The notes below the pieces were generated by a model that was given only the letters and a program-made list of their open reading frames with translations, ran no database searches and was not told the DNA's origin. From Salipiger mucosus DSM 16094 (GTDB taxonomy: Bacteria; Pseudomonadota; Alphaproteobacteria; Rhodobacterales; Rhodobacteraceae), in the NCBI RefSeq assembly GCF_000442255.1, contig NZ_KE557281.1, positions 1 through 64,000 on the forward strand: 64,000 bases of DNA, in the 5' to 3' direction. Position 1 is the first letter of the stretch. Each line of letters opens with the position of its first letter. The translations under genes and the position numbers were made by a program. Below are positions 34,960 to 50,779 of the stretch, piece by piece.

Positions 34960-35157
34960 AGGGAGGTTGTGCGCATTTCGGACCAAGAACCATCGGCTCG
35001 CGATGAACGGAACCTTCAAATCGGAAGCATACGAAATGCTCAAAAGCGTTCTATAACCGGACCGAAACGAGGGGAAGCTTCTTTTTCTAACACGCGCTTT
35101 ATGTGAGCTCAATCTATGCCTTAGTTTTAACACAATGCGGCCTCCGCCGGGTGGTTA

Positions 35158-35997
35158 GGGTCAGGACTCGTTCTCTCTCAAAGCCAGAAGATTACGGTCG
35201 CAGCGAGTGCGATTGCTGAGAAGAAGGTTTGTGGGCAGCGGTCATAACGGGTCGCAACCCTCCTCCAGTCCTTGAGCCTGCCGAACATGATCTCAATGCG
35301 GTTGCGACGTTTGTATCTGCGCTTGTCGTACCGGACGGGAGTCTTCCGTTTCTTCCGGCCCGGGATGCAAGGACGTATCTTCTTGTCCTGCAAGGCTTCT
35401 CTGAACCAATCGGCATCATAGCCACGATCTCCGAGAAGCCATTTCACGTTGGGCAGCCCGCTGACGAGCGCACGTGCCCCGATGTAGTCGCTGACGGGAC
35501 CGGCGGTCAGGAACAGGTCGATGGGTCGGCCTTGGCTGTCGCAGATGGCGTGCAACTTCGTGTTCATGCCGCCCTTGGTTCTACCGATCAGGCGTCCACG
35601 CCCCCTTTTTGACGCCCAAGCTGGACGCCGTACGATGAGCTTTCAGATGAGTTGCATCGATCATCACGGTCGTCTCCTCGCCGTGCTCTGCGGCCAGCCC
35701 CGCCATGATCCGGGCGAAGACGCCCCGGTCGCTCCACCGCTTCCAACGGTTGTAAAGCGTCTTGTGCGGGCCGTATTCCCTTGGCGCATCTCTCCACCGC
35801 AAGCCATTGCGATTTATGAAGATAATCCCGCTCAGGACACGCCGGTCATCAACCCTAGGCTTGCCGTGCGACTTGGGGAAGTAAGGCTCCAGACGCGCCA
35901 TCTGCGCATCGCTCAACCAGAAAAGATCAGACATGTTCACCGCTCGTTTTCGAACGGTGAATCACGATCGACAAACCAAATCAATGGGTCCTGACCC
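35158..35997 (-). mobile_element. complete IS5-family (IS427-group) insertion sequence, 840 bp
   Basis: The ends are inverted repeats: GGGTCAGGAC at the left and GTCCTGACCC at the right, flanked by a duplicated TA (35156-35157 and 35998-35999). Inside is a transposase in two overlapping frames, the usual layout for the IS427 group. Insertion hit the stop codon of larC: before insertion the gene would have ended GGC TAA, now GGC TAG, so the protein length is unchanged. Confidence 0.85.
35178..35940 (-). CDS. IS5-family transposase, two frames joined by frameshift
   Basis: The first frame (35940-35581, 119 residues) has the N-terminal DUF4096-type domain (FWLSDAQMARLEPYFP, RRVLSGIIFINRNGLRWRDAPREYGPHKTLYNRWKRW) and the first catalytic Asp in TTVMIDATHLKAHRTA. 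The second (from 35567 to 35178) carries GRTKGGMNTKLHA, LLGDRGYDADWFR and the final glutamate region RRNRIEIMFGRLKDWRR. They join at a run of five A and five G (35601-35610) by a shift of +1 (or -2), as in related elements. DDE residues are all present, so it may be active. Confidence 0.85.
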
Positions 35998-37163
35998 TAG
36001 CCTATGATGCGGCGCCGCACTTGCAGGCTCGGGGCGTCAGCGAGGTCATCGCTCTCCAACTTGGACGTATCGCCAGAGGGCCGCTCCGCAACTTTCCGGC
36101 GCAAGCCGGATGGCGTCTCAACCGTGCGCCGTGCCAACGTATGACGGGTCAGCACCAGCCGGCGAAGACCTAGTGTCGTGGTGAGATCGAAGAGCATATC
36201 GGCGATTCGTTCCTCCGCTTCAGGAACAACGAGTACCTCGAGCCGAGTGACCGGACGCCCCTTTTTGCCAAAGGCTTGAGACAGAACGAGATCGCGCAGT
36301 CCATCTGCCACGCGCAGTTTTCCCGCCGCCCAGCCGATCTCCTCGCCGGTCATATCGTCGATGTCACAGGCGAGCTGAATCACGATATCGGTTTGTCGAC
36401 CATGGGTTGTAGCAAAGGCGGTGACGCGGAGGATATTCGGTAGCCCCGGTAAATCCCGCGTCCCTGCACCGCTTCCAATGGCCTGCAATGACCCGGCCGT
36501 CCGATTGCCGTTCCCGTGCCCCCCGGTCACATGCGCAAGTATTGCCGCCCCGGTCGGTGTCACTCGTTCGCCTGGCACTCCGTCATCGATCCAGTCATAG
36601 CCTTGCAGAATCTCGGCCGTTGCCGGGGCTGGCACCGGCAGTAGGCCATGAGCCGTCTTTACGCGCCCAGAACCAAGGGGCAGCGCACCGACGCTCCAGC
36701 TGCACTCCGGCAAGGCCGCACAGATGCTGCCCGCGGCGGTTACATCCATCAGCGCATCCCAATCCGCGATTTCATGGAAATGCACTCGGTCCAGTGGGAT
36801 GCCATGCACCGCCGCTTCGGCTACAGCGATGCGGTGGAGGATCGCCGTGGCCTCCGACGTGGTACCCGGAGCGAGGTCCGCCGCCTCGATCAGAGATCGC
36901 ATCGCCCGGTAGGTGGTCTCTTCGCCGTGACGCGCATTCCCAGCCTCGCCAGGAACCAGCCGCAGGCGCCGGACTGTGATGCCGGCGCACCGCCCGGTAT
37001 TCAGCTCGGGCCGTCCTGCGATGGAGGGCAGTATTGCCTCGATGTCCCTTATGACCCGACTCTCGAGGTCGGGAAAAGCGTCGAGCATCGCAGCCACGAA
37101 CATGTCCCCAGCGGCACCGCCAACCGGATCGAGATGCAAATGCATGCCTCGGCGGTCTGTCAT
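35997..37163 (-). CDS. larC: LarC, nickel-insertion protein for the nickel-pincer cofactor
   Basis: The 388-residue protein begins HLHLDPVGGAAGDMFVAAMLDAFPD and has the LarC-typical HRIAVAEAAVHGIPLDRVHFHEIADWDALMDVTAAG and ERVTPTGAAILAHV. LarC inserts Ni into the dithiocarboxylated pyridinium nucleotide to finish the cofactor of LarA. In some species the gene is split; here it is one frame. It overlaps the LarA-homologue gene by ATGA. Its stop codon was rebuilt by an IS5-family insertion without changing the length. Confidence 0.9.
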   Translation of the reverse strand: MTDRRGMHLHLDPVGGAAGDMFVAAMLDAFPDLESRVIRDIEAILPSIAGRPELNTGRCAGITVRRLRLVPGEAGNARHGEETTYRAMRSLIEAADLAPGTTSEATAILHRIAVAEAAVHGIPLDRVHFHEIADWDALMDVTAAGSICAALPECSWSVGALPLGSGRVKTAHGLLPVPAPATAEILQGYDWIDDGVPGERVTPTGAAILAHVTGGHGNGNRTAGSLQAIGSGAGTRDLPGLPNILRVTAFATTHGRQTDIVIQLACDIDDMTGEEIGWAAGKLRVADGLRDLVLSQAFGKKGRPVTRLEVLVVPEAEERIADMLFDLTTTLGLRRLVLTRHTLARRTVETPSGLRRKVAERPSGDTSKLESDDLADAPSLQVRRRIIG

Positions 37164-38488
37164 GCGCGCGACTCCTCCCAGCGATCGGCAAGAATGCCAT
37201 CCTGGAACCGCATCTCCTGAAGGTTCCCTATTATCTCGACACCGGGACGGTCCCGCAATTCCGGGAGCATCGCCTCGGACGCATAGAAGTACTCCAGTTG
37301 TAGCGTGTTGCGGATCCGCAGCATCCGCGGACGCGTCACATCCTCGGCGCCACAAGTCTTGATCACCGCCTGGATCGCGGAGCGTTCGTCCGGCATGACC
37401 ATAGGTATTTTGGCCTGCGCCAGCACCGTCGATGTCAGTGCATTGGCATACACCGCCTCGCGGTCGAAAGCCTCCTCGAGTGCCTGGGTCACCACGTCAG
37501 CGCGCGCCGCGCCGTTGCCGTTGCCGTTGCTGCGCGGCGAGAGGCGAAGTGCGGCGAGGCGCGAGATATGCAACGTTCCCTTCATCTTGGGCGATGAAAA
37601 GCGGTGCGTAATATTGGGGTCCATACCGGTGCCGGAGAATTCCTTTCCGATCTCGTCGACGACCAGCACGTCGAGCTGGCCCTCCGCAGTCTGTGCATCG
37701 ACTGGTCCAAGCGGTAGCCGCGGCATGTTCGCCATTGCTTCTTCTAGGAAAGGCTGCTCAGCTTCGAGCATGCCGTCGCGGTCGAGAAGGACAACACGCG
37801 CGAGCTGATCGTATGCGTTCTCAATCGTCCCGATCCCGAATAGCACCTTGCAGCGTTCGAGTTTCATCCGGGCCATCGCGTCAATATAGATCGGAACGGC
37901 GTCGATCCCGCGGGAATGGCAGGTCTCGGCGCCTGACTGCTTGCCGAGGCCGATGGCCAGCATCTTGGCCAAGCCGCTCTCGTTCGGTGCGCGGAATGAA
38001 GTGTGCGGCTTGATCCGGTTGAACAACACGATCCCGTCCGCCTCGTGAGCGAGGCAGTCGATCCGAACTGACATACCGTTGTCAAGGCGCCCGACCTCGA
38101 CAGTATCCATTGACGATCGTATCGGACAGCCGATGCTCTCCTCGGTGACGCCGAGCTTGGCGAGAAGTGCACTTTGTCCCTCGGCGGTGGCGCCACCATG
38201 GCTGCCCATCGCCGGTACCACGAACGGATCGGCGCCGCGGGCCCGAATATCTGCAATCAGGGCGGTGAGGAGTTCGGGGAATGCGGCGATACCGCGGCTG
38301 CCGGCGGTAACTGCGACCGACATGCCGGGCTGAAGCCTATCCGCACCGGGCCCGGACATCGCCTCGTGTATCGCGGCGGCCGGATCGTCAATTCGCGCTC
38401 CGTCGAAGCTTTGTCGACAGAGAGCCATACGCGGCAACGGGGTATCTTCGACCATCTTAACGTAATTGGGTCGCTTGGAATCTGGCAT
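37160..38488 (-). CDS. LarA-family nickel-dependent 2-hydroxyacid racemase/epimerase homologue (DUF2088)
   Basis: The 442-residue protein has the LarA N-terminal domain. Conserved parts are GSRGIAAFPELLTALI, MGSHGGATAEGQ (His97, matching the catalytic-histidine loop), IVLFNRIKPHTSFRAPNESGLAKMLAIGLGKQSGAETCH (Lys160, His162 and several lysines that could hold the nickel-pincer nucleotide). LarA itself interconverts D- and L-lactate; homologues act on other 2-hydroxy acids. This sequence differs from classical LarA (GLHR loop), so lactate is unlikely to be its substrate. GGAGAGAG precedes the ATG at 38488. It lies with larC, larB, larE, a TRAP transporter and two oxidising/decarboxylating enzymes. 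Confidence 0.82.
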   Translation of the reverse strand: MPDSKRPNYVKMVEDTPLPRMALCRQSFDGARIDDPAAAIHEAMSGPGADRLQPGMSVAVTAGSRGIAAFPELLTALIADIRARGADPFVVPAMGSHGGATAEGQSALLAKLGVTEESIGCPIRSSMDTVEVGRLDNGMSVRIDCLAHEADGIVLFNRIKPHTSFRAPNESGLAKMLAIGLGKQSGAETCHSRGIDAVPIYIDAMARMKLERCKVLFGIGTIENAYDQLARVVLLDRDGMLEAEQPFLEEAMANMPRLPLGPVDAQTAEGQLDVLVVDEIGKEFSGTGMDPNITHRFSSPKMKGTLHISRLAALRLSPRSNGNGNGAARADVVTQALEEAFDREAVYANALTSTVLAQAKIPMVMPDERSAIQAVIKTCGAEDVTRPRMLRIRNTLQLEYFYASEAMLPELRDRPGVEIIGNLQEMRFQDGILADRWEESRA

Positions 38489-38840
38489 GTCGTCTCTCTC
38501 CTTCCTCAGCCCGTGTCCTCGATTGACCCGCGCCCGAACGCCTTCTCGCCGATCCTGTCGATCTCCAAGGACCGCCTCGCTGAACAAGAGGCGATCAACA
38601 GGGTGAACTGCAAGAGGTCTTAGTCAATTTCGTCAAGCGTCATCTACCCGTCGATTGCCAACCGCAATAGATCCCCTTGCAATCGCACACCGACTCGACT
38701 GCGCGGTGTTCGAGGCCAGCTTGGTCGCCGGCACGGGATACGATCCTCCACTGTCCGTGGTGAAGCAGATCGCCTTCTCTTCGTGCGCGACCTGGCTGGT
38801 GGCGTTCGGACCGTTCCGGCCGCATGCGTGTTTCTCAACG
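38489..38840. other. intergenic stretch, no gene seen
   Basis: This 352-base gap separates the LarA homologue from the FAD dehydrogenase upstream on the same strand. Frames on both strands are arginine-rich and unrecognisable. It probably contains a promoter for larA-larC, but no convincing -35/-10 pair stands out. Confidence 0.4.
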
Positions 38841-40274
38841 TCACAGGACTTTCCCGGGATTCATCAATCCATGTGGGTCTAGCGCGTCCTTGATCTGCTG
38901 CATCAACTGCAGCGCTACCGGATCACGATAGCGGCGCAGCTCGCCACGTTTGGCCAGCCCGACTCCATGCTCCGCAGAGAACGATCCCCCCATCTTCACG
39001 ACGATGTCGTGCACGATCCGGTTCAACGCATCGTATTCCCCTAGAAAATCGGCATCTGACATGTCGACTGGGCGAGTAAGGTTGAAATGGATGTTGCCGT
39101 CGCCAAAATGCCCGAAGGGACACGGTCGCAGGTTAGGGACATGCGCCCGTACCGCCGCGACGGCTTCGGTGAGGAAGTCGGCGACCTGCGCAACCGGCAC
39201 CGCGACGTCGTGTTTTATCGACGCGCCGTAGCTCTTTTGCGCCTCAGACATGTTCTCGCGCATTGCCCAGAGCGCATCCCGTTGCGACTCCGAGGCACCG
39301 ATGACCGCGTCGAGGATCTCCTCCGCTTCCAGCGCATCCGCGAGTACGGCCTCAAGCCGCGGCCCAATATCGGCCTCTGAGTCCGATGTGGCCAGTTCGA
39401 CTAGTGCATAGGCCGGATAGGCCTGAGCCATCGGATCAGACGTCCCGGGACTGTGTGCAAGGCTCATCTCAAGCCCCAGCCTCTCAAGATACTCGAAGGT
39501 GGACAGAATGTCTCCGTGCCGCGTGCGAAGGCGGTCGTAGAGTGCCAGTGCGTGGTGCGGCCCGCCGCAGGCGACAAGCGCGGTGGCCCGGGAGACCGTT
39601 TTGGGGAACAGCTTGATTACTGCCGCGGTGATTACGCCGAGCGTTCCCTCGGCGCCGATAAAAAGGTTCTTTAGATCGTAACCGGTGTTGTTCTTTCGCA
39701 AACCATTGAGGTCGCGAAGGATCTGCCCGTCCGGCAGCGCAACTTCGAGACCGAGAACCAGATCGCGAGTGTTCCCATAGCGCAGCACCGCCGTGCCGCC
39801 GGCATTGGTGGCGAGATTTCCGCCGATCTGGCACGATCCTTCGGAGGCGAGGGATAGCGGGAACAGCTTGCCGATGCGGTCGGCCTCCGCCTGAACCTGG
39901 GCAAGAATGCAGCCCGCCTCGACAGTCATCGTGGCGTTTATCGGGTCGATATCCCGGACTTGATTGAGCCTGCCGGTCGTCAGGATCACCCCGCCGTATG
40001 GCACCCCGCCACCTACGAGCCCAGTATTTCCGCCTTGCGGCACCACAGGCACTCCCGCCGAGGTGCAAATGCGCAGACAAGCGGCCACCTCCTCGGTGGT
40101 GCCGGGGCGGATCTCGGCGCTCGCAGTGCCGCGGAACAAACCGCGATCCTCTACCAGCCTTGGCGCGAGTTCGGATGCACCCGTGACGACGTTGCGCGCG
40201 CCGACTGCTGCCCGCAATTGGTCGAGCACGCTTTCCGGAGCCACGACGGGCGCGTCCTGCAGGGTGAGCGTCAT
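38841..40274 (-). CDS. FAD-linked D-2-hydroxyacid dehydrogenase (GlcD/D2HGDH-type)
   Basis: The 477-residue protein is a VAO/PCMH-type flavoprotein. The FAD-binding loop is PVVPQGGNTGLVGGGVPYGG (about residues 75-95), followed by ATNAGGTAVLRYGNTRDLVLGLEV and FIGAEGTLGVI; the C-terminal FAD-oxidase domain has CPFGHFGDGNIHFNL and SAEHGVGLAKRGEL. Relatives oxidise D-lactate, glycolate or D-2-hydroxyglutarate. It overlaps the ThDP enzyme gene by ATGA, so oxidation of a 2-hydroxy acid followed by decarboxylation of the 2-keto acid is the natural reading. Substrate unknown. Confidence 0.87.
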   Translation of the reverse strand: MTLTLQDAPVVAPESVLDQLRAAVGARNVVTGASELAPRLVEDRGLFRGTASAEIRPGTTEEVAACLRICTSAGVPVVPQGGNTGLVGGGVPYGGVILTTGRLNQVRDIDPINATMTVEAGCILAQVQAEADRIGKLFPLSLASEGSCQIGGNLATNAGGTAVLRYGNTRDLVLGLEVALPDGQILRDLNGLRKNNTGYDLKNLFIGAEGTLGVITAAVIKLFPKTVSRATALVACGGPHHALALYDRLRTRHGDILSTFEYLERLGLEMSLAHSPGTSDPMAQAYPAYALVELATSDSEADIGPRLEAVLADALEAEEILDAVIGASESQRDALWAMRENMSEAQKSYGASIKHDVAVPVAQVADFLTEAVAAVRAHVPNLRPCPFGHFGDGNIHFNLTRPVDMSDADFLGEYDALNRIVHDIVVKMGGSFSAEHGVGLAKRGELRRYRDPVALQLMQQIKDALDPHGLMNPGKVL

Positions 40275-41983
40275 GAACAGCCTCCTTCGACGGATTGACG
40301 AAGCCGCGCGGACTCGCGCAGCTTGGTGATGGTCGTTCGGGTCGAGATCTGCTCGGGCTCAGTGATCAGCTCAATCAACGCGGCCCGGCCGCTAGCGCGC
40401 GCTCGCTCGAAGGCCGGGCCGAAATCTTCTGTGCGCGTTACCTGTTCGGCATGCGCCCCGAGGCCTTCTGCGACGCGGCAGAAATCGGTCGCAGATAGAT
40501 CGGTGCCGCTGACCCGCTCAGGGTGCTCGCGTTCCTGATGCATGCGTATAGTGCCGTAGGTGCCATTGTTGACGAGGATTATGATCGGAGTTGCGCCATA
40601 ATGAGCGGCAGTGGCAAGCTCGGCGCCGCTCATCTGGAAGCCGCCATCGCCGACGAAGGCAACTACGCAGCGACCCGGATGGCCGAGCGATGCGGCGACC
40701 GCGACGGGCACCGAATACCCCATCGCGCCGCAGGTCGAGCCGAGCTCCCGCCCCGGACGACCGAAGCGCAAGTAGCGCTGCGCCCAGCCTGTATGGTTGC
40801 CCGCATCGAGCGTTACGATCGCATCCTCGGGCAGCCGCGTACGCAACTCTCCCACCGCGACATCCATATCTAGCTTCCAGGCCGCAGTCTCCGGTGGGGT
40901 GGTATCCGACAGGTACTCGGCCCGCAGCCCCTCGGTCCAACCCGCCCAGTCATCCGTACGACCGAGATTCAGGTCCGCCAATGCGGCGGCCGCTTCTGCC
41001 GGTGCGCAGGCAAGGCCAATCTCGGGTGAATAGACCCGTCCAATCTCATCCGGGTCGGGGTGTAGATGCACCAACCTGAGACCGGGATCCGGCGGCGTGA
41101 TCGCCTCGTAGGTCTTGGTCGTCATCTCGCCAAGGCGGGCACCAATGACTAGGAGCAGATCCGCCTCCCTGAGGCGCGCAATCAGTGCCGGTCCGGTCGA
41201 GGTCCCGAAATCTCCAGCATAGACCGGAGAGCGATTGGACACGATATCTTGCCGTCGGAACGAGCAGGTCACCGGGATGCCGTTGCGTTCGGCAAAGCGA
41301 GTGATCCCGGCGCAAGCCGCATCGTCCCAGCCCGATCCGCCAACCAAGATCAGCGGCCGCTCAGCCTGTTTCAATGCCTCCCCGATATTTGTCCGCCCCT
41401 GGGGCGACAGCGCGGCGCGCGTCGGGGCGTACGCAGGCGCATCAGCGACGCGCGCCCGCTCGGTAAGCATGTCTTCCGGTAGCGCGATCACCACGGGCCC
41501 AGGGCGACCGGACGTCGCAACGCGGAATGCCCGCGCCATGTATTCGGGAATCCTTGTTGGATCCTCGATCTGCGTCACCCATTTCGCGATGGGGCCGAAC
41601 ATCGCGCGGTAGTCGATCTCCTGGAACGCCTCCCGGTCGGTGGTGCCCCGTGCGATTTGCCCGACCAGAAGGATCATGGGGGTCGAATCCTGCTGGGCAA
41701 TATGCACCCCGATCGCGGCGTGGCAGGCACCCGGTCCGCGCGTGACCATTGCAATACCGGGCCTCCCGGTTAGCTTTCCGTGCGCCTCGGCCATGTTGGC
41801 CGCGCCAGCCTCGTGCCGGGCATTGATTAGGCGGAAACGGTCGCGCACGTCGTAGAGCGCGTCGAGCACCTCGAGGTAGCTTTCGCCTGGCACGCAGAAG
41901 CCGGTATCGGCGCCGTGGTTCAGCAGCTGGTCTACGAGGATCTGCCCGCCGGTACGGATCCGGGTTTCAGATGTCATGAGCAT
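40271..41983 (-). CDS. thiamine-diphosphate-dependent enzyme (acetolactate-synthase-like)
   Basis: The 570-residue protein has the three ThDP-enzyme domains: N-terminal Pyr domain with catalytic Glu58 in NARHEAGAANMAEAHGK, a central domain (LILVGGSGWDDAACAGI) and a C-terminal PP domain with the ThDP motif GDGGFQMSGAELATAAHYG ending NNGTYG. Family members include acetolactate synthase, benzoylformate decarboxylase and sulfopyruvate decarboxylase. Its place between a TRAP transporter and an FAD 2-hydroxyacid dehydrogenase suggests a 2-keto-acid decarboxylase or lyase. Start is the ATG at 41983; another lies at 41977. Confidence 0.85.
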   Translation of the reverse strand: MLMTSETRIRTGGQILVDQLLNHGADTGFCVPGESYLEVLDALYDVRDRFRLINARHEAGAANMAEAHGKLTGRPGIAMVTRGPGACHAAIGVHIAQQDSTPMILLVGQIARGTTDREAFQEIDYRAMFGPIAKWVTQIEDPTRIPEYMARAFRVATSGRPGPVVIALPEDMLTERARVADAPAYAPTRAALSPQGRTNIGEALKQAERPLILVGGSGWDDAACAGITRFAERNGIPVTCSFRRQDIVSNRSPVYAGDFGTSTGPALIARLREADLLLVIGARLGEMTTKTYEAITPPDPGLRLVHLHPDPDEIGRVYSPEIGLACAPAEAAAALADLNLGRTDDWAGWTEGLRAEYLSDTTPPETAAWKLDMDVAVGELRTRLPEDAIVTLDAGNHTGWAQRYLRFGRPGRELGSTCGAMGYSVPVAVAASLGHPGRCVVAFVGDGGFQMSGAELATAAHYGATPIIILVNNGTYGTIRMHQEREHPERVSGTDLSATDFCRVAEGLGAHAEQVTRTEDFGPAFERARASGRAALIELITEPEQISTRTTITKLRESARLRQSVEGGCS

Positions 41984-42008
41984 GGGTACAGGTCCGCTTT
42001 TGGAACAG

Positions 42009-43877
42009 TCATTCGCCGGTTTCAGTCGCCAGCGTTGAGGGCTTGAAGTACTGGCCCGCCAATACCACCGCGGCAATGACGAACCCGGTCAGAGTCATCC
42101 GCCAATCCGGGTAGATGAGAAACAGCGCGGCAGCCAATAGTGCCGGCGCCTGCCAAGCATTGAGGCGGCCGAAGAAGTACCGTTGCAGCGCGGCAGCAAG
42201 GAAGATCACGCCCACGGTCGCTTGCAGGAGCACCAGCACGATGCGATGGGCCTCGCCCTGCATCAGGATGGTCGGTTCGTAGACGAACATGTAGGGAACG
42301 ATGAAACCGGTGGCGCCGAGCTTTACCGCCGCGATGCTGGCTTCGACGATCTTGGCCCGCGAGAGTGTATTCGCGGCGTAGACCGCCATCGCCACTGGTG
42401 GTGTGATCGCCGACAGGATGGCGAAGTAGAACACGAACAGATGGGCCGCCTCTACCTGCACGCCGAGCTTGACCAGAGCCGGCACCAGAAGCGAGACCTG
42501 CACGATGTAGGCCGGGGTGGTGGGCATCCCCATGCCGAGGATGATGCCCGCTACCATCGACAGCAGCAGCGCGAGTAGCAACGTGTCCTGTGCGGCCGAG
42601 ATCACCATGTTCGAGAAGGTCAGGCCCAGACCAGTGATGTCGATGACACCAACCACAATCCCGGCGCAGGCGCAGGCTGCGGCGATCGACAGCACGTTGC
42701 GTGCGCCGTTCTCGAGCGCAATGAGTATGTTGTCTAGGGTGACATAATGCCGGGTGGTTGAGCGCAACAGGGTGCAGGGAATCACAGACATGATGCCGCA
42801 CAGCGCCGAGAATGGCGCCGAATACCCCATCAGCAGTGCGCCGATGATCACTGCCAGGGGCAGGAACAGGTGACCTCGATCACGCAGGACCTTACCAAGT
42901 GGGACCTGGTCCTCGCGCGGGACAGATCCGATGCCGCGGCGCTTGGCCTCGAAATGCACGGCAGCGAAAAGCGCGACGTAGAACAGGACGGCAGGCGCAA
43001 GTGCGTATGCCGCGACGGTTAGATAGCCGACGCCGAGGTACTCCGCCATTACGAATGCCGCTGCGCCCATCACCGGCGGCATGATCTGCCCACCGGTCGA
43101 GGCGACGGCCTCGACAGCGCCAGCGAAGGCAGGCTTGAAGCCCATGCGTTTCATTAGCGGAATCGAGAACGTCCCGGTGGTCATCACATTGGCGACGGCC
43201 GAGCCCGAGACCGACCCAAAAAGTCCGGATGTCACGCATGCAACCTTGGCCGGGCCACCGGCCTGCCGCCCGGTGATAGCTACGGCGAAATCCATGAATA
43301 GTTGACCGACGCCCATGCGCTCCACGAAAGAGCCAAAGATGATGAACAGCACCATGTAGGTCGCCGAGACCGCGATCGGGATGCCGAAGATACCCTCAGT
43401 GGTCATCATCAGTTGCTCCATGATCACGCTCGGAAGGGTTGAGGTGAACAGGAAACCGTAGGCGAGAAAGCACAGGGCAGTAATCGGTAGCACTGGCCCG
43501 AGCACGCGGCGAGTGCCCTCGAGCACCAGAAGCGTCAATACGATCGCCGCAATGAGATCGATCGGGGTCAGGGGGTCGACGTAGATGAACCGGCTGAAGA
43601 TATAGTCGAGGTTGAGTGCCGGATAGAGCGCGGCAAAAAAACCTGCCGCCGCAAGCCCCAGATCGTACCAGGCGGGACGATCGGTCGTGAACCCTCGTGC
43701 TGTGGTCGTAAGGAAGATGAGCAGCAGTGCCAGCGCAACATGCAGCCCGCGCATCACATAAGGACCTGGCGTGCCGGAAAAGGCCACGTAGAGATGCCAA
43801 AGGGCCATTCCGATTAGTGTGATGCGGGCGATGCGCGCGAGAAGCGGCATGCGGTCCGTGAGAATAGATAGGTGCAT
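42009..43877 (-). CDS. TRAP transporter permease, fused DctQ-DctM (TAXI type)
   Basis: The 622-residue protein has about 16-18 membrane helices: a short 4-helix part (about 15-130) fused to a 12-helix DctM part with VPxxxGxxx-type motifs such as GGPAKVACVTSGLFGSVSGSAVANVMTTGTFSIPLMKRMGF and GIILGMGMPTTPAYIVQVSLLVPALV. This 4TM/12TM fusion works with a TAXI-type binding protein, which is encoded just upstream. It imports an organic anion using an ion gradient. Confidence 0.92.
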   Translation of the reverse strand: MHLSILTDRMPLLARIARITLIGMALWHLYVAFSGTPGPYVMRGLHVALALLLIFLTTTARGFTTDRPAWYDLGLAAAGFFAALYPALNLDYIFSRFIYVDPLTPIDLIAAIVLTLLVLEGTRRVLGPVLPITALCFLAYGFLFTSTLPSVIMEQLMMTTEGIFGIPIAVSATYMVLFIIFGSFVERMGVGQLFMDFAVAITGRQAGGPAKVACVTSGLFGSVSGSAVANVMTTGTFSIPLMKRMGFKPAFAGAVEAVASTGGQIMPPVMGAAAFVMAEYLGVGYLTVAAYALAPAVLFYVALFAAVHFEAKRRGIGSVPREDQVPLGKVLRDRGHLFLPLAVIIGALLMGYSAPFSALCGIMSVIPCTLLRSTTRHYVTLDNILIALENGARNVLSIAAACACAGIVVGVIDITGLGLTFSNMVISAAQDTLLLALLLSMVAGIILGMGMPTTPAYIVQVSLLVPALVKLGVQVEAAHLFVFYFAILSAITPPVAMAVYAANTLSRAKIVEASIAAVKLGATGFIVPYMFVYEPTILMQGEAHRIVLVLLQATVGVIFLAAALQRYFFGRLNAWQAPALLAAALFLIYPDWRMTLTGFVIAAVVLAGQYFKPSTLATETGE

Positions 43878-43981
43878 GGCGGATATCCCTCGAAGCCGGC
43901 CTGAACTGCGATCAGTTGCGGGAAAGCCGCCCCGCCTGGCAGCGGGGCGGCGGCCGCAGCGATGCGGCGATCATTGTTGGA

Positions 43982-44944
43982 TCAGCCGCCGAAGCTGACG
44001 CCGCGCTCCTCGTAGAATTCTTTCGCGGCGGGGTGCATTGGCACACCGATGTCGGCGGCCATGTCTTCGGCGGTAAGGTCCGCCATCGCCTTGTTGATCG
44101 AGCCCATCGATTCAAGGTTGTCGAGCACCCCCGACAGCACCGCCTTGACGATCTCGCCATCGAATTCGCAATCAGCGACCATGTGGGTATCGTAGGTGAT
44201 CGCCTGTTTGGGTTCGTCAACGCCAGGATAGGCTCCTGCCGGCACCTCGCGCATCTGAAATGCGGCGTTTTGGGCCTTGAACGTTTCGAACAGTTCCTCG
44301 CTCACGCCGACGACGTCGATGTCACGCGACGAGGCGATGTCCATTACCGCACCCGCCGGCATCGCAGTGCCGAGGGTGAAGACGTCAGCGTGCCCGTCCT
44401 TCATCATCGAGGCGCTGTCGGAATAGGAGACGTGGCTGACATCGTCCAGATCATCGTAGCTGAGCCCCAGTGCCTCCAGCGCCGCCCTGGTCAATAGTTC
44501 ACCGGTATGGCCATTCTGCTGCGTCGTCAGGCGCTTCCCGGCGAAGTCCTCGACCGAGTTGATCTCGGCAGAGTCGAGCGCGATGATCTGGAAGTACTGC
44601 GGATAGAGTACCCCGAGGTTGCAAACCCCCTCTGTCGCCTCACGGAACGGCGCTCGTCCTTTCTGGCCGTCGACAGTGGAGATTGAGTTTGCAAAACCAA
44701 TCGGGAACCGGCCGGTGTCGACGCCGACGACATTGGCAATGCCGGCGCCCGGCGTGACGGTGATGCTGATATCCGGGCGCGCCTTCTCGACCGCCGCCTT
44801 GATCGCCCCGCCAACAGGGAACCACGAGCCTCCTTGAGAGCCGGTCGCCATTACGAAGCTCTCGGCCTGCGCGGACATCGCGCTGGCGCCGACGACAAAG
44901 AATGCGGCCACAGCGCGAGCTGCGACGTTGAAACGATAGGTCAT
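43982..44944 (-). CDS. TAXI-family TRAP transporter substrate-binding protein
   Basis: The 320-residue precursor has a signal peptide (VAAFFVVGASAMSAQA) and TAXI hallmarks: FVMATGSQGGSWFPVGGAIKAAVEK, ITVTPGAGIANVVGV, LYPQYFQIIAL and DVFTLGTAMPAGAVMDIA. It captures the substrate in the periplasm for the permease gene that follows. GGGAGGATCC precedes the ATG at 44944. It is the first gene of the operon that ends with larC and is divergent from a GntR regulator gene. Confidence 0.92.
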   Translation of the reverse strand: MTYRFNVAARAVAAFFVVGASAMSAQAESFVMATGSQGGSWFPVGGAIKAAVEKARPDISITVTPGAGIANVVGVDTGRFPIGFANSISTVDGQKGRAPFREATEGVCNLGVLYPQYFQIIALDSAEINSVEDFAGKRLTTQQNGHTGELLTRAALEALGLSYDDLDDVSHVSYSDSASMMKDGHADVFTLGTAMPAGAVMDIASSRDIDVVGVSEELFETFKAQNAAFQMREVPAGAYPGVDEPKQAITYDTHMVADCEFDGEIVKAVLSGVLDNLESMGSINKAMADLTAEDMAADIGVPMHPAAKEFYEERGVSFGG

Positions 44945-45112
44945 TGGATCCTCCCAATCTACGTATCTTGCTATCTGACCCGACATCCGCCTCCGCGGAT
45001 CCTCCTTGCGCCGGATCGTGCACTGAACGGAAAACCGTTCTTCGGACAGGCTGTCGCAACGCCGGCCAACTTGTCAACTTTTAATACATCGATAGGCTGA
45101 TTTATTCCCGCT

Positions 45113-45124
45113 TGTAATATTGCA
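45113..45124. promoter_or_regulatory. TGTAATATTGCA palindrome in divergent control region
   Basis: This 12-bp sequence pairs with itself except at one symmetric position. It lies in the 222-base region between the TAXI binding-protein gene and the GntR gene and resembles short AT-centred operators of FCD-type GntR proteins. It may be the target of the adjacent regulator. Confidence 0.4.
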
Positions 45125-45166
45125 TGCCGTCTTTATCATTGCTTTCCAAAGATCGAGGCTCTATGA

Positions 45167-45958
45167 ATGCGTAATTCGGAATGTTGTGATACAGGTGTCG
45201 GAGGAGGCAAGCCGCCCGTGAGTGATGCTGCTATACCCGGCTGCGTGCTGTCACGCGGCGAGACTCTTAGCGATCAGGCCACCAAAGCGCTGCGCCTCAG
45301 AATCATGAGTGGCGACTTCAAGGTCGGCGCCAAGCTGCCTTCTGAGAACATACTGGCGCGCGATCTGGACGTCAGCCGAACGGTAATTCGCGAGGCGGTG
45401 TCACGCCTCAAGGCTGAGGGGCTCTTGATTGCGCGGCAGGGCCGCGCCGCCTTCGTGCTTCGCAACCGGCCGCGGCGCGGCTTCGCCATCTCAGAAAGCG
45501 ACGTCGAAGACATTGACTGCCTATCGCAGATACTGGAGCTGCGTCTCGGGATCGAGGTCGCTGCGGCTGCCCTAGCCGCCCAGCGCTGTACGCCTGACGC
45601 CCTTGAAGACTTGTGGGCAGCGATCGCGGAATTCCGGACCTCGCGCGCCGGACAGTCCGTCTGTGCCAACGCCTGCGCCGAAGCGGACCTAAAGTTCCAT
45701 CGCTCGATTATAGATTTGACCGAGAACGATTACTTCATCGACCTCTTCAGTTACCTCTCGGCCTCGCTGCGCCTTGCGATCGAACTCGGGCTGCAGGCGG
45801 CCCCGGCGCGGGAGGATGACCGCCCTGAGGCGCTCGCCGAACACGAAGCCATCGCCGCAGCTATCGAAGCCAATGATTCAGAGGGCGCAGCCGCGCGAAT
45901 GCGCGAGCACTTGCATCGATCCAACCGCCGCCTGATCGAGCAGTTGACCACGGAGTAG
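45167..45958 (+). CDS. GntR-family (FCD) regulator of the Lar-linked operons
   Basis: The 263-residue protein has a winged helix (GAKLPSENILARDLDVSRTVIREAVSRLKAEGLLIARQGRAAFV) and an FCD domain (LELRLGIEVAAAALAA, ADLKFHRSIIDLTEND, HEAIAAAIEANDSEGAAARMREHL). Two starts are possible: ATG at 45167 or GTG at 45218; the GTG has GGAGGAGG about 10 bases upstream and may be the true one. The gene is divergent from the transporter operon and 11 bases ahead of larE, so it likely controls both. Confidence 0.87.
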   Translation: MRNSECCDTGVGGGKPPVSDAAIPGCVLSRGETLSDQATKALRLRIMSGDFKVGAKLPSENILARDLDVSRTVIREAVSRLKAEGLLIARQGRAAFVLRNRPRRGFAISESDVEDIDCLSQILELRLGIEVAAAALAAQRCTPDALEDLWAAIAEFRTSRAGQSVCANACAEADLKFHRSIIDLTENDYFIDLFSYLSASLRLAIELGLQAAPAREDDRPEALAEHEAIAAAIEANDSEGAAARMREHLHRSNRRLIEQLTTE

Positions 45959-45969
45959 GAACGCGCGCC

Positions 45970-46773
45970 ATGACAATCTCGAACACTCTTGTCACCATCC
46001 TCAGCGAGCCGCGTCATCTGGTGATCGCCGTCAGCGGCGGCGTTGACAGCCTGACCTTGTCGGCCGTCGCTGATTTGGCGCGTGGCGGGACCTCTATGAC
46101 GCTGTGTCACGCCGTGTCCCCGGCAGTGCCCGCCCACGCGACGGACCGTGTCAAGCGCTTCGCCGACGAGCGCGATCTGCCGCTCCACCTCATCGATGCC
46201 GAGGAGATGCAGGATCCGGACTACACCGCCAATCCGGTCAACCGCTGCTATTTCTGTAAGTCGAACCTTTACCGCCGCCTCGCTCCGTTGGTGTCCGAAG
46301 GCACGATCTGCGCCGGAACCAACGTTGACGATCTCGGGGACTATCGCCCCGGCCTCACAGCCGCAGACGAACATGACGTTCGCCACCCGTTCGTTGAAGC
46401 CGGCCTCGCAAAGGCCGATATCCGCAATCTGGCTCGGTCTATGGGGCTCGGCGACGTGGCCGAGCTGCCTGCCGCGCCCTGCCTTGCAAGCCGGATCGAG
46501 ACCGGGCTGCGCGTCACGCCCCGCGATCTGAAAATCATCGACCGGGTTGAAGGCGCACTGCGCGACTGCCTCGGCCCGGTGACTCTGCGCTGCCGGCGTC
46601 GGCGGACCGGGCTCGTCATTGAGATCGATCCGGAACTGTTCGCCGCAATCACGAAGAGTGAATTGGCCACGCTGACCAGCCTCGCGCGACACCACGCAGA
46701 CGCGAATGGGGGCTCCGGATTGTCCCTATCCTTCGAGGCCTACAGCCGTGGGAGCGCGTTTCTTCATGCCTGA
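45970..46773 (+). CDS. larE: LarE, sulfur-transfer enzyme for the nickel-pincer cofactor
   Basis: The 267-residue protein has the PP-loop ATPase motif SGGVDS (residues 22-27), NRCYFCKSNLYRRL (91-104) and APCLASR (Cys171). LarE adds sulfur to the carboxylated nucleotide intermediate. Classical LarE sacrifices the cysteine at the position of Cys171. Two further cysteines, Cys200 and Cys208, occur in its C-terminal part, as in the variant LarE proteins that bind an iron-sulfur cluster. It overlaps larB by 8 bases. Confidence 0.9.
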   Translation: MTISNTLVTILSEPRHLVIAVSGGVDSLTLSAVADLARGGTSMTLCHAVSPAVPAHATDRVKRFADERDLPLHLIDAEEMQDPDYTANPVNRCYFCKSNLYRRLAPLVSEGTICAGTNVDDLGDYRPGLTAADEHDVRHPFVEAGLAKADIRNLARSMGLGDVAELPAAPCLASRIETGLRVTPRDLKIIDRVEGALRDCLGPVTLRCRRRRTGLVIEIDPELFAAITKSELATLTSLARHHADANGGSGLSLSFEAYSRGSAFLHA

Positions 46774-47449
46774 TCCGACGAACAGCCGCGCCGACGTTTC
46801 TTTCGACCGCAACCGTGCGAAGAGGATTGGCTTGGAAGAAGCCGTTCTCGCGCAGCACAAGAGCGTCGAGCAGATCGCCGGAATTCTATCCGATGCGATC
46901 GCCGAGGATCGGCGCCTCCTTCTTACTCGGTTAGCCCCCGCACAGGTCGCAGCCCTGCCCGCACACATCAGCGCCCGGCTTGACTATTGTCGTGACTCGT
47001 ACACTGCCATTCTGGGTCCCTGCCCCGTCCAATCTGGGCCGCGCCAAGTCGCGTTGGTCAGCGCCGGAACCTCGGACCACCGGCCGTTATCCGAGACGCG
47101 GCGCGTACTGGCCTATTCCGGCGTCGCCGCCGAGACGATCGCCGATGTCGGGGTCGCCGGGCTCTGGCGCCTGCTGCAGAGGGAAAGCGAACTGCGCGAG
47201 ATGTCGGTCATACTCGTTTTCGCCGGAATGGACGCTGCCTTGCCGAGCGTGGTTGCCGGTTTGGTGCCAAGTCTCGTAATCGCAGTGCCGACCTCCGTCG
47301 GATACGGTGTGGCCGAAGGAGGCCGGGTTGCGCTCGACTCGGCGCTCGCTAGCTGCGCCCCAGGGGTCTTGGTCGTCAACATCGACAACGGGTACGGCGC
47401 GGCTTGCGCTGCGCTGCGGTTCCTCAACGCAGCCACGGCTGCCCGATGA
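46766..47449 (+). CDS. larB: LarB, pyridinium-nucleotide carboxylase/hydrolase
   Basis: The 227-residue protein has an N-terminal helical part (RNRAKRIGLEEAVLAQHKS) and a C-terminal PurE/NCAIR-mutase-like domain (VALVSAGTSDHRPLSETRRVLAYSG, DVGVAGLWRL, FAGMDAALPSVVAGLVPSLVIAVPTSVGYG). LarB carboxylates nicotinic acid adenine dinucleotide and cleaves it, the first step of nickel-pincer cofactor synthesis. The ATG at 46766 lies inside the end of larE. Confidence 0.9.
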   Translation: MPDPTNSRADVSFDRNRAKRIGLEEAVLAQHKSVEQIAGILSDAIAEDRRLLLTRLAPAQVAALPAHISARLDYCRDSYTAILGPCPVQSGPRQVALVSAGTSDHRPLSETRRVLAYSGVAAETIADVGVAGLWRLLQRESELREMSVILVFAGMDAALPSVVAGLVPSLVIAVPTSVGYGVAEGGRVALDSALASCAPGVLVVNIDNGYGAACAALRFLNAATAAR

Positions 47450-47473
47450 TCGCATCGCGGCAGAGGATACACG

Positions 47474-48190
47474 ATGGCTGAAACGAGGGTTAGGATACGC
47501 AAGCGGAAGACGCTGACCGACCAGCTCTACGGTCAGATCCTTGAGCAGATCGTGTCAGGCCAGCTGCAAGAGGGAGATAAGTTGCCCTCGGAGCATCAGA
47601 TATGCGATGCATTCGCGGTCTCGCGCCCGGTGGTCCGCGAGGCACTGCGGAGGCTGCAGGAAGACCACCTGATCGAAAGCCGCCGTGGCGTCGGCTCGTT
47701 CGTCCGCAAGCGTCCGCCGCAGGGGCTCATCGAGTATGCCAGCGCAGACAGCGTGGCCGGTCTGATGCGCGCTATGGAGGCGCGGATGACAGTCGAAAGT
47801 GCGACCGCCCGCATGGCTGCCCAACGCGCCGACTCGGCTGACCTGACCAAGATATCGGACGCGCTCGACGCGTTGGAGCAGTCGATGGCCCTGCGTCAGC
47901 CGTCGCGGGATCCGGATTTCGCGTTCCACCTCGCCGTGGCTGAGGCCAGCCACAACGAGGTCTATGTGGCTATGCTGCAATCCGCGCAGGAGGTCATGCA
48001 ACGCGCGATCGATGTCGCGCAGTCGATCACCCGTGGCGGTAGCCAGGCGCGAGTCGACAGAGTTCTGCTCGAACACCGGCAGATTTACGAAGCGATCCTC
48101 TCTCGCGACGCGGAGGCCGCTGGGCTGAGCATGGCCTACCACTTGTTGCAGGCCCGTCAGAGGATCACCGACCACGCGCGCGAGGAATGA
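47474..48190 (+). CDS. second GntR-family (FCD) regulator
   Basis: The 238-residue protein begins with the winged helix (DKLPSEHQICDAFAVSRPVVREALRRLQEDHLIESRRGVGSFV) and continues with an FCD domain (MEARMTVESATARMAAQ, PDFAFHLAVAEASHN, LLEHRQIYEAI). It follows larB by 24 bases on the same strand and is the last gene of the plus-strand lar operon. Together with the regulator at 45167 it gives two GntR genes flanking larEB. Confidence 0.87.
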   Translation: MAETRVRIRKRKTLTDQLYGQILEQIVSGQLQEGDKLPSEHQICDAFAVSRPVVREALRRLQEDHLIESRRGVGSFVRKRPPQGLIEYASADSVAGLMRAMEARMTVESATARMAAQRADSADLTKISDALDALEQSMALRQPSRDPDFAFHLAVAEASHNEVYVAMLQSAQEVMQRAIDVAQSITRGGSQARVDRVLLEHRQIYEAILSRDAEAAGLSMAYHLLQARQRITDHAREE

Positions 48191-49513: not shown

Positions 49514-49563
49514 ACGGGTGTCGCCGGGAGGTCCGGTTGACAAAATACTATGCGGAGGTCGCA

Positions 49564-50685
49564 ATGGGTAAGGAAAACGGCAAGGTTGCCGTCATCATCG
49601 GACGCTTTCAGTCCTTCCACCGTGGACACGGTGAGCTGCTTCGCAAGGCAGCAGAAATCTCCCCGAACATCTTGGTGCTTGTCGGATCCTCGTTCCGTCC
49701 ACGGACGCCGAAGAACTGGTTCACGTTTCGCGAGCGTCGTGGCTTCATCGAGGCCGCTGCCGAGGACATGGGCATCGATGCCGACATCGGGTGCCTCCCG
49801 CTTGTCGATACGCTTTACGACAACGACGCCTGGTGCAACAACGTCCGTACGGCGGTCAATCTTCACAAACAGAACACCGGCCTCGACCGGGACGCGGACG
49901 TCGTGATCGTGGGCTACGAGAAGGATGCGTCGAGTGACTACCTGAACTGGTTCCGTAGTTGGGGATGGCAGGAAGCCTACATCGACGCGATCTGCGACGG
50001 CGGAGACGTGCTGAACGCCACGGATCTGCGCAAGGCCGTCATGTGCAACGGGGCGGCCGGGGCTCGCATGCTGGCGGGGACCCACGGCGAGGCGAACGTC
50101 GAGCGACTTCTGAGCTGGGTCGACGCCAACCCGGAAACGATGGCTTACCTCAAGTCGGAAGCCGACTACGAGGACGCCTACAAGGCGAAGGTGGCCGAAG
50201 CCGAGGAAATCTTCGGGTTCGCGATCCCCGTGAATACCGCCGACAACGTGGTGACGCAGAACGGGAACATCCTGCTGGTAACCCGGAAGAACGCGCCAGG
50301 AAAGGACCTGTACGCCCTCCCCGGCGGGCATATCGAACGCGACGAGACGTCCCTCGAGGCCGCAATCCGCGAACTGCGTCAGGAAACGAAGCTGAATATG
50401 CCGGCCGGGGCGATCAAGGGCCGCCTGAAGGATCGCCGGATCTTCGATCACCCGAAGCGTTCTGCGCGGGCCTGGGTGCGGACCGAGGTCTTTCACTTCG
50501 ATCTCGAGGGCCGGGCAAAGCCCGAGAAGGTCAAGGGTGGCGACGACGCCAAGGAGGCGTTCTGGAAGCCGATCAACGAGCTGACGCCGGACATGTTCTT
50601 CGAGGACCACTTCGACATCATCCAGTCGATGGTTCCGAACGTGCCATTCGCCTACTCGTCGATTCTGATGAGCGCGATCCACTGA
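49564..50685 (+). CDS. bifunctional NMN adenylyltransferase / Nudix hydrolase (NadM-Nudix)
   Basis: The 373-residue protein has an N-terminal nucleotidyltransferase domain (VAVIIGRFQSFHRGHGELLRKA, the GRFxPxHxGH-type site; later YEKDASSDYLNWFRSWGW and NATDLRKAV) and a C-terminal Nudix domain (GGHIERDETSLEAAIRELRQETKLNM, the GX5EX7REUXEEXGU box with a Gln at one position). The first half makes NAD from NMN and ATP; the second hydrolyses ADP-ribose-type substrates. This domain pair occurs in several bacteria and in phages. The ATG at 49564 follows GGAGGTCG. It is followed by a decayed nadV. Confidence 0.9.
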   Translation: MGKENGKVAVIIGRFQSFHRGHGELLRKAAEISPNILVLVGSSFRPRTPKNWFTFRERRGFIEAAAEDMGIDADIGCLPLVDTLYDNDAWCNNVRTAVNLHKQNTGLDRDADVVIVGYEKDASSDYLNWFRSWGWQEAYIDAICDGGDVLNATDLRKAVMCNGAAGARMLAGTHGEANVERLLSWVDANPETMAYLKSEADYEDAYKAKVAEAEEIFGFAIPVNTADNVVTQNGNILLVTRKNAPGKDLYALPGGHIERDETSLEAAIRELRQETKLNMPAGAIKGRLKDRRIFDHPKRSARAWVRTEVFHFDLEGRAKPEKVKGGDDAKEAFWKPINELTPDMFFEDHFDIIQSMVPNVPFAYSSILMSAIH

Positions 50686-50779
50686 ATTCAAGAATTCCGC
50701 GCCGTGGTGGCGCGGATGCCCCGGGTGGGCCTGGAGGTCAGGACACCCCTAAAAATCCAACCGAAGAGGACCTGGAAAA

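What the first reader, a model, noticed from the sequence alone, without database searches (positions are those of the whole stretch)
35997..48190. Complete nickel-pincer racemase pathway linked to a TRAP transporter, FAD dehydrogenase and ThDP enzyme
Two divergent operons hold everything for uptake and use of a 2-hydroxy acid: TAXI binding protein and fused TRAP permease, a LarA homologue, the cofactor genes larB, larC and larE, a GlcD-type dehydrogenase and a ThDP-dependent enzyme, with two GntR regulators. Seen in sequence: all genes, their ATGA couplings and the order. Known: LarA needs LarBCE; GlcD-type enzymes oxidise one enantiomer of 2-hydroxy acids; ThDP enzymes split 2-keto acids. 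Inference: racemase makes the enantiomer the FAD enzyme needs, the keto acid is then cleaved by the ThDP enzyme. The LarA homologue has GSHGG in place of classical GLHR, so lactate is unlikely to be the substrate. I know of no described pathway with this set.
Basis: partly seen in the sequence, partly recalled or inferred. Interest (0 to 1): 0.8.

Follow-up and report, generated by a model that had tools for sequence, protein, structure and literature searches.

The report
Trimmed nickel-cofactor sugar-acid uptake island
A bacterium of a mainly marine family carries a gene island that seems to import a hydroxy acid, flip its handedness with a rare nickel enzyme and break it down; relatives carry a longer version that looks built for sugar-derived acids, and this copy has lost one key enzyme.

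Summary
The genes are real and mostly as described: LarA homologue, larC, larE, larB, FAD dehydrogenase, ThDP enzyme, TAXI-TRAP transporter, two GntR regulators. LarA scores as NCBIfam "NPN isomerase group 22", for which I found no assigned substrate. All ten genes occur in 5 of 5 genomes compared (LarA about 77% or more), and by matching counts on about 60 Sulfitobacter/Pseudosulfitobacter plasmids. Two corrections. "Complete" is wrong: in most close relatives LarA lies directly behind an altronate/galactarate-type dehydratase (UxaA); here only a frameshifted remnant survives before larA, and an IS5-like element replaces the last codons of larC. And LarA's context in relatives is sugar-acid catabolism (UxaA, L-arabinonate dehydratase; in Bacillota mannonate oxidoreductase, gluconokinase), while the FAD enzyme has D-2-hydroxyglutarate-dehydrogenase-type residues, so the substrate is probably a polyhydroxy, perhaps dicarboxylic, acid. 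What remains here is import, C2 epimerisation, FAD oxidation, ThDP cleavage. TAXI, ThDP and one GntR have unusually long branches in this copy. Substrate and every reaction are inferred.

The parts
35153..36002 (-). IS5-like element whose right inverted repeat supplies the stop codon of larC
   Evidence: 20-nt inverted repeats 35153-35172 / 35983-36002, 85% complementary; transposase-like frames 35178-35567 and 35581-35940 (by eye); IS5 family transposase annotated under matches to the first 100 bp of the query in several plasmid records
35997..37163 (-). larC (388 aa, last few residues replaced by IS sequence); only LarC match in the genome
   Evidence: TIGR00299 and NF052512; single match in own genome; end sequence
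37160..38488 (-). LarA homologue, NPN isomerase group 22 (442 aa); H97, H162, K175 correspond to catalytic/cofactor residues
   Evidence: NF052515 479 bits; AlphaFold model pLDDT 92, the 18 PDB matches with E<=0.001 are all LarA-family; residues
38509..38806 (-). remnant of a UxaA-type (altronate/galactarate) dehydratase, C-terminal ~100 codons in two frames
   Evidence: tblastn with the LarA-linked UxaA of G016; three-frame view
38841..40274 (-). FAD-dependent dehydrogenase with D-2-hydroxyglutarate dehydrogenase-type residues (K354, N398)
   Evidence: Pfam; PDB 3pm9 465 bits, 6lpn 304 bits; residues
40271..41983 (-). ThDP-dependent enzyme, acetolactate-synthase-like, PRK08199 subfamily; Glu of the HEAGA motif present
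   Evidence: NF006052 780 bits; motif
42009..43877 (-). TRAP transporter fused permease
   Evidence: TIGR02123 614 bits
43982..44986 (-). TAXI-family solute-binding protein (start codon not settled)
   Evidence: TIGR02122 207 bits
44987..45166 (.). divergent promoter region with a TGTCAA...AATACA element shared with relatives
   Evidence: read by eye from the eight sequences printed; no statistical test
45167..45958 (+). GntR/FCD regulator 1
   Evidence: Pfam
45970..46773 (+). larE
   Evidence: TIGR00268 241 bits
46766..47449 (+). larB
   Evidence: NF033503 239 bits; start
47474..48190 (+). GntR/FCD regulator 2
   Evidence: Pfam

Best explanation
A catabolic island, often plasmid-borne in relatives, for a polyhydroxy 2-hydroxy acid (sugar acid, possibly an aldarate-like dicarboxylate). 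The TAXI-TRAP transporter imports it; the nickel-pincer enzyme LarA, with cofactor made by LarB, LarE and LarC, inverts C2; in the parent system one C2 epimer is dehydrated by UxaA and cleaved by the HpcH/HpaI aldolase, while the D epimer is oxidised at C2 by the FAD enzyme and the 2-keto acid is decarboxylated or ligated by the ThDP enzyme. The window copy is a trimmed and rewired derivative: UxaA is reduced to a remnant, no HpcH copy above 44% identity was found in this genome, and larA-larC now lie behind the TAXI-TRAP-ThDP-FAD genes on the same strand, leaving import, epimerisation, FAD oxidation, ThDP cleavage. Shown: genes, conservation, order, remnant, LarA family and predicted fold. 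Inferred: every reaction, the direction, the substrate class and co-transcription.
For: Ten core genes in 5 of 5 genomes compared; among 293 genomes (own included) the three best hits for LarA (80% or more), ThDP (72% or more) and the FAD enzyme (63% or more) fall in the same three genomes (LarA). Plasmids (72,556 records): LarA at 60% or more in 60, TAXI in 60, UxaA at 80-90% in 60, FAD enzyme in 59, ThDP in 69. UxaA-LarA-LarC order in G016, two Sulfitobacter genomes, MAG G295, L021 (UxaA in two parts) and plasmids W002 and pSMR1-2. L-arabinonate dehydratase (1085 bits, cut-off 882) in the Sulfitobacter island; the same dehydratase stands beside the ThDP homologue in 4 of 30 ThDP loci, all at 63-65% identity, and in Martelella. 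Sugar-acid markers in 57 of the 69 neighbourhoods of 17 kb or more. HpcH best matches HpaI and GarL, the DHDPS-like protein 5-dehydro-4-deoxyglucarate dehydratase, UxaA galactarate dehydratase, all below curated cut-offs. The FAD enzyme keeps the Lys and Asn that bind the distal carboxylate in human D-2-HGDH.
Against: UxaA and HpcH orthologues are absent from G170 as well as from the window genome, so neither is indispensable to LarA. L-arabinonate dehydratase points to a monocarboxylic pentonate, the FAD residues to a dicarboxylate. The K401/N443 equivalents are kept in 29 and 30 of 30 FAD-enzyme homologues, so they mark the subfamily, not this pathway; T390 is Ser (Ala in G016) and Y432 is Phe. 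12 of the 69 long neighbourhoods, G170's among them, show no sugar-acid marker. The 40 plasmid rows shown are ~82-kb plasmids of one species with equal scores, so the 60 are far from independent. Desguin 2020 state that context did not always predict activity.
Confidence: 0.5

Rival explanations
1. One reading: a simple 2-hydroxy acid is taken up, racemised, oxidised to the 2-keto acid and cleaved by the ThDP enzyme, a nickel analogue of the mandelate pathway; UxaA, aldolase and the rest are unrelated neighbours in the plasmid islands.
For: The ten-gene core is kept in G170 and the window although UxaA and HpcH are gone; FAD and ThDP genes are adjacent in the 5 genomes and again, at about 40-50% and 47% identity, in a Xanthobacteraceae MAG that has a 63% LarA on another stretch.
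Against: LarA is directly behind UxaA in G016, two Sulfitobacter genomes, MAG G295, L021, W002 and pSMR1-2; LarA homologues across Bacillota often sit with sugar-acid genes; the ThDP homologue pairs with a sugar-acid dehydratase elsewhere.
Confidence: 0.25
2. The window copy is decaying and no longer works: loss of UxaA, an IS at the end of larC and loss of the GntR3 operator leave an unused relic.
For: Frameshifted UxaA remnant; IS5-like element at larC end; no match to YTRATATATCAG in the window with up to 1 mismatch (0.12 expected by chance); long window branches for TAXI, ThDP and GntR1.
Against: The ten core frames are open and of normal length; LarA motif residues are unchanged; the other seven genes show no excess.
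Confidence: 0.2
3. The substrate is a sulfonate such as 3-sulfolactate: UxaA-family SuyAB is a sulfolactate sulfo-lyase and ThDP enzymes act on sulfopyruvate.
For: The UxaA/GarD superfamily includes SuyAB (PMC6336799); roseobacters use sulfonates, and a ThDP sulfopyruvate decarboxylase is known (both recalled).
Against: The linked UxaA is a single fused 514-aa protein with GarD as its best match among solved structures, whereas SuyAB is heteromeric; the aldolase and L-arabinonate dehydratase of the island have no evident role there.
Confidence: 0.05

Closest known systems
D-gluconate 2-epimerase GntE and other LarA-family racemases (Desguin 2020, PMC7583248; Urdiain-Arraiza 2024, PMC11770544)
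   Same: LarA family, both catalytic His, cofactor genes larB/larC/larE nearby; in part of the Bacillota loci the LarA homologue sits with mannonate-type oxidoreductase, gluconokinase-like kinase and 6-phosphogluconate dehydrogenase, which resembles a mannonate-gluconate route
   Different: Group 22 is not among the groups in Table 1 of the 2020 paper (I take NCBIfam's group number to follow that paper); I did not map the nine enzymes of the 2024 paper onto groups. Coupled here to TAXI-TRAP, FAD and ThDP genes
Mandelate pathway (recalled: mandelate racemase, mandelate dehydrogenase, benzoylformate decarboxylase)
   Same: Same logic of racemase, flavin dehydrogenase, ThDP enzyme
   Different: Racemase here is a nickel LarA, not an enolase-superfamily enzyme; FAD enzyme is D-2-HGDH-type; transport and dehydratase parts differ
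Galactarate pathway (GarD, GarL) and non-phosphorylative pentonate routes (PMC6336799, passages)
   Same: UxaA/GarD dehydratase, HpcH/HpaI aldolase, IlvD/Edd dehydratase, DHDPS-like enzyme and aldehyde dehydrogenase in the relatives' islands
   Different: I recall no LarA, NPN genes, FAD dehydrogenase or ThDP enzyme as part of those routes; in the window the dehydratase is lost

Membership tests
LarA (NPN-dependent isomerase) superfamily | Family profile score | tested here: met
   NF052515 479 bits over cut-off 400; Pfam Lar_N 27.8 over 23.3
LarA (NPN-dependent isomerase) superfamily | LarA fold | tested here: met
   Predicted model, pLDDT 92; the 18 PDB chains with E<=0.001 are all LarA-family, TM 0.44-0.58, rmsd 6.5-10.2
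LarA (NPN-dependent isomerase) superfamily | Two catalytic His (H108, H174 of LarA) | tested here: met
   A weak alignment (E 0.12) of the homologue L035 to 2yjg pairs both His; the same His, H97 and H162 in the window protein, are invariant in 51 sequences
LarA (NPN-dependent isomerase) superfamily | Cofactor residues R75, K184, H200 and catalytic D72, K298 | tested here: inconclusive
   K175 pairs with the Lys; R65, H191, K282 are invariant but lay outside that alignment; no Asp three residues before R65 in the 7 sequences
LarA (NPN-dependent isomerase) superfamily | Binds NPN and inverts C2 | not testable with these tools
   -
D-2-hydroxyglutarate dehydrogenase type of FAD enzymes | R386, H434, H441, E475, H476 and the strictly conserved K401, N443 (human numbering, PMC7801405) | tested here: met
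   Same residues in the window enzyme
D-2-hydroxyglutarate dehydrogenase type of FAD enzymes | T390 and Y432, highly conserved in D-2-HGDH orthologues | tested here: not met
   Ser and Phe in the window enzyme
D-2-hydroxyglutarate dehydrogenase type of FAD enzymes | Activity on D-2-hydroxyglutarate | not testable with these tools
   -
Glycolate oxidase GlcD | TIGR00387 curated cut-off | tested here: not met
   254 bits against 568
Glyoxylate carboligase | Lacks the catalytic Glu of ThDP enzymes (recalled) | tested here: not met
   Glu present in ARHEAGA in all 7 compared
Complete dehydratase-based sugar-acid pathway | Intact UxaA next to LarA | tested here: not met
   Only a remnant in the window; two other UxaA paralogues at 49-50% elsewhere in the genome

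The most novel reading that the evidence does not exclude
A catabolic pathway caught while switching substrate: a nickel-pincer epimerase was freed from its dehydratase and placed behind a FAD dehydrogenase and ThDP enzyme, giving a nickel version of the mandelate-pathway logic, while the parts most likely to see the substrate (binding protein, ThDP enzyme, one regulator) diverged faster than the rest: 42-51% of their tree length lies on the window branch, against 25-31% for the other seven genes.
Probability: 0.2. Interest if true: 0.7.

Novelty: new variant of a known kind. Interest (0 to 1): 0.5.

Why it matters
The island gives a testable substrate class and tractable organisms (all 40 plasmid rows shown name a diatom as source), and would show how nickel-pincer chemistry is wired into marine carbon use.

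Tried and rejected
Glycolate-to-glyoxylate-carboligase reading: dropped, since the ThDP enzyme keeps the Glu and the FAD enzyme is D-2-HGDH-like. Sulfolactate reading: kept only as a minor rival. PDB profile searches with the LarA alignments gave mainly chance repeat-protein hits above 2yjg, which itself reached only E 0.39, so the fold search was used instead. Full-length superposition with LarA structures is poor (rmsd 6.5-10.2), perhaps from domain rotation, so substrate-pocket residues were not assigned. The TAXI/GntR1 promoter element was read by eye and not tested. Supplementary tables of Desguin 2020, which list the gene context of each LarA group, could not be opened (no look-ups allowed), so group 22's context may already be tabulated there. 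Limits: 86 neighbourhoods, with L010 and L015 from the same genome (G170 = G299); the 80 best of 586 relatives plus six others, most of them Bacillota; fixed thresholds; flanks too short to reach the FAD, ThDP and TAXI genes of G170 and the Sulfitobacter genomes, which were fetched later. Limits: in the LarA tree the window branches off first among the five close relatives, so a longer window branch is expected for every gene; only the difference between genes is informative, and faster change, relaxed constraint and replacement by transfer were not separated. Sul2 sequences contain masked or ambiguous letters, so columns with X were dropped there.
Full report
Genes. The window holds larC, larA, a FAD dehydrogenase, a ThDP enzyme, a fused TRAP permease and a TAXI binding protein on the minus strand, and gntR, larE, larB and gntR on the plus strand (families). 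LarA scores 479 bits with the NCBIfam model 'nickel pincer cofactor-dependent isomerase, group 22' (cut-off 400). Its predicted model (pLDDT 92) matches only LarA-family structures at E<=0.001 (18 of 18). In a weak alignment (E 0.12) of the Bacillota homologue L035 to 2yjg, the His of its GSHGG and of its KPH motif pair with the two His of the structure; both are invariant in 51 sequences.

Linkage. Of 293 genomes (own included) 7 have a match to the group-22 model, all over the cut-off. The best hits for LarA (100, 81 and 80% identity; next 43%), ThDP (100, 74, 72%; next 65%) and the FAD enzyme (100, 69, 63%; next 56%) fall in the same three genomes: the window's, G016 and G170. Adding two Sulfitobacter genomes (G293, G294), all ten genes are present in 5 of 5. 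In G170 the LarA-LarC pair lies about 20 kb from the nearest gene of the other block on the same contig. A sixth genome, MAG G295, has UxaA, LarA and LarC on a 6-kb contig but no ThDP match. On plasmids (72,556 records), LarA at 60% or more occurs in 60, TAXI in 60, UxaA at 80-90% in 60, the FAD enzyme in 59 and ThDP in 69. Over all records matched, Pseudosulfitobacter counts 47 (46 for the FAD enzyme) and Sulfitobacter 13 (20 for ThDP). Row listings were cut, so that these are the same records is shown only in part; the 40 rows shown for LarA are ~82-kb plasmids of one species.

What relatives add. In G016, both Sulfitobacter genomes and the annotated plasmids W002 and pSMR1-2, the order is UxaA-type dehydratase, LarA, LarC, with a third GntR and an HpcH/HpaI-type aldolase nearby; pSMR1-2 was read only up to its TRAP gene. 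W002 also has L-arabinonate dehydratase, a DHDPS-family protein, RraA, an NADP aldehyde dehydrogenase, a 2-hydroxyacid dehydrogenase and a NIPSNAP protein between the halves. A second plasmid, P5, shows the FAD-ThDP-TRAP-TAXI and LarE-LarB block, but the stretch read ends before any LarA. UxaA and HpcH orthologues are absent from G170 and from the window genome, which has UxaA paralogues at 49-50% and HpcH paralogues at 44% or less.

The window copy. Between the FAD gene and larA lie 352 nt, about 300 of which match the last hundred residues of the LarA-linked UxaA in two frames. The best piece scores 42.4 bits with the G016 protein, 39.7 with the S. dubius one, 28.1 with the G112 one and 27.3 with the own C17 paralogue; the own C7 paralogue gave no hit. 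Of 1000 Markov shuffles 341 gave any hit, at most 23.5 bits. The palindrome CTGATATATCAG found before UxaA or LarA in G016 and G170, with variants in the Sulfitobacter-type copies, has no match in the window with up to one mismatch. An IS5-like element ends at the stop of larC, the genome's only LarC match. larA-larC therefore probably depend on read-through from the TAXI promoter (inference).

Uneven change. In seven-taxon trees the window branch is 51% of total length for TAXI, 45% for ThDP and 42% for GntR1, against 25-31% for the other seven genes. The window branches first in the LarA tree, so some excess is expected throughout. The contrast between genes fits a change of substrate, relaxed constraint, or replacement by transfer; I did not separate these.

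Substrate class. Of 86 neighbourhoods of LarA homologues (85 distinct, two being the same genome) 61 have a sugar-acid marker, and 57 of the 69 that are 17 kb or longer: SDR of the mannonate type 33, gluconokinase-like 28, IlvD/Edd 24, UxaA 22, 6-phosphogluconate dehydrogenase 20, UxaC 11; FAD 0, ThDP 0, TAXI 1 (fixed thresholds; a 29% ThDP match in L019 was under them; the FAD, ThDP and TAXI genes of the close relatives other than the TAXI gene of G016 lie beyond the flanks held). 12 of 69 show no marker, G170 among them. The ThDP homologue stands beside L-arabinonate dehydratase in 4 of 30 loci, all at 63-65% identity, and beside the FAD gene in 3 of 30, all in LarA genomes; Martelella shows the dehydratase pairing too. 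The FAD enzyme's best matches among solved structures are 3pm9 and human D-2-HGDH; it keeps R386, K401, H434, H441, N443, E475 and H476, while T390 is Ser and Y432 is Phe. The paper on human D-2-HGDH says K401 and N443 bind the distal carboxylate, are strictly conserved in D-2-HGDH orthologues and are replaced in GlcD and most D-LDHs (PMC7801405, passages). In 30 homologues of this enzyme K is kept in 29 and N in 30, so this marks the subfamily. These lines favour a polyhydroxy, perhaps dicarboxylic, acid, without settling it.

Literature. PMC7583248: four sections and passages; group 22 is not in its table of assayed groups. PMC11770544: outline with abstract, two sections and passages; 'group 22' does not occur in its main text, and I did not map its enzymes to groups. 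PMC12611868: first of five parts only. PMC6336799: passages and section 8. PMC7801405: passages. Other titles were seen only in listings with the start of the abstract. No paper with this gene set was found in the searches, which cover one open-licence library.

Verdict. A real, conserved island, plasmid-borne in several relatives, and a new variant of LarA-dependent catabolism; the window copy is trimmed, not complete.

Noticed in passing
window 49537-51558: A NadM/Nudix-like protein followed by nicotinamide phosphoribosyltransferase-like sequence whose frame looks broken (read by eye); NAD-salvage genes next to an NPN-cofactor island, which draws on a NAD precursor.
   Followed up: no
window 56898-59609: Large CheA-like protein apparently fused to CheW/receiver parts (read by eye).
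   Followed up: no
window 61226-63684: Two adjacent minus-strand genes resembling capsule polysaccharide (KpsS/KpsC-like) proteins (read by eye).
   Followed up: no
plasmid records: Many Pseudosulfitobacter pseudonitzschiae strains from diatom cultures (Skeletonema, Thalassiosira, Trieres, Mediolabrus) carry LarA and TAXI genes of the island on an ~82-kb plasmid.
   Followed up: partly
LarA homologues below 60% identity on haloarchaeal plasmids (Haloarcula, Haladaptatus, Halocatena and others); the group-22 model also rings in Haloferax volcanii.
   Followed up: no
L175 6944-9522 and L094 116-2498: LysR and SDR genes shared by G016 and the Sulfitobacter islands flank the cluster, in Sulfitobacter (W002) with a 3-hydroxyacyl-CoA dehydrogenase-like and a 3-keto-5-aminohexanoate cleavage gene.
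   Followed up: no
L202 1584-1754: A short hypothetical protein on pSMR1-2 is tagged as a predicted trimethoprim-resistance gene in the plasmid table; possibly a spurious label.
   Followed up: no
L178 8456-11385: A Xanthobacteraceae MAG with a 63% LarA elsewhere has an FAD gene (matched in three pieces) next to a ThDP gene.
   Followed up: partly
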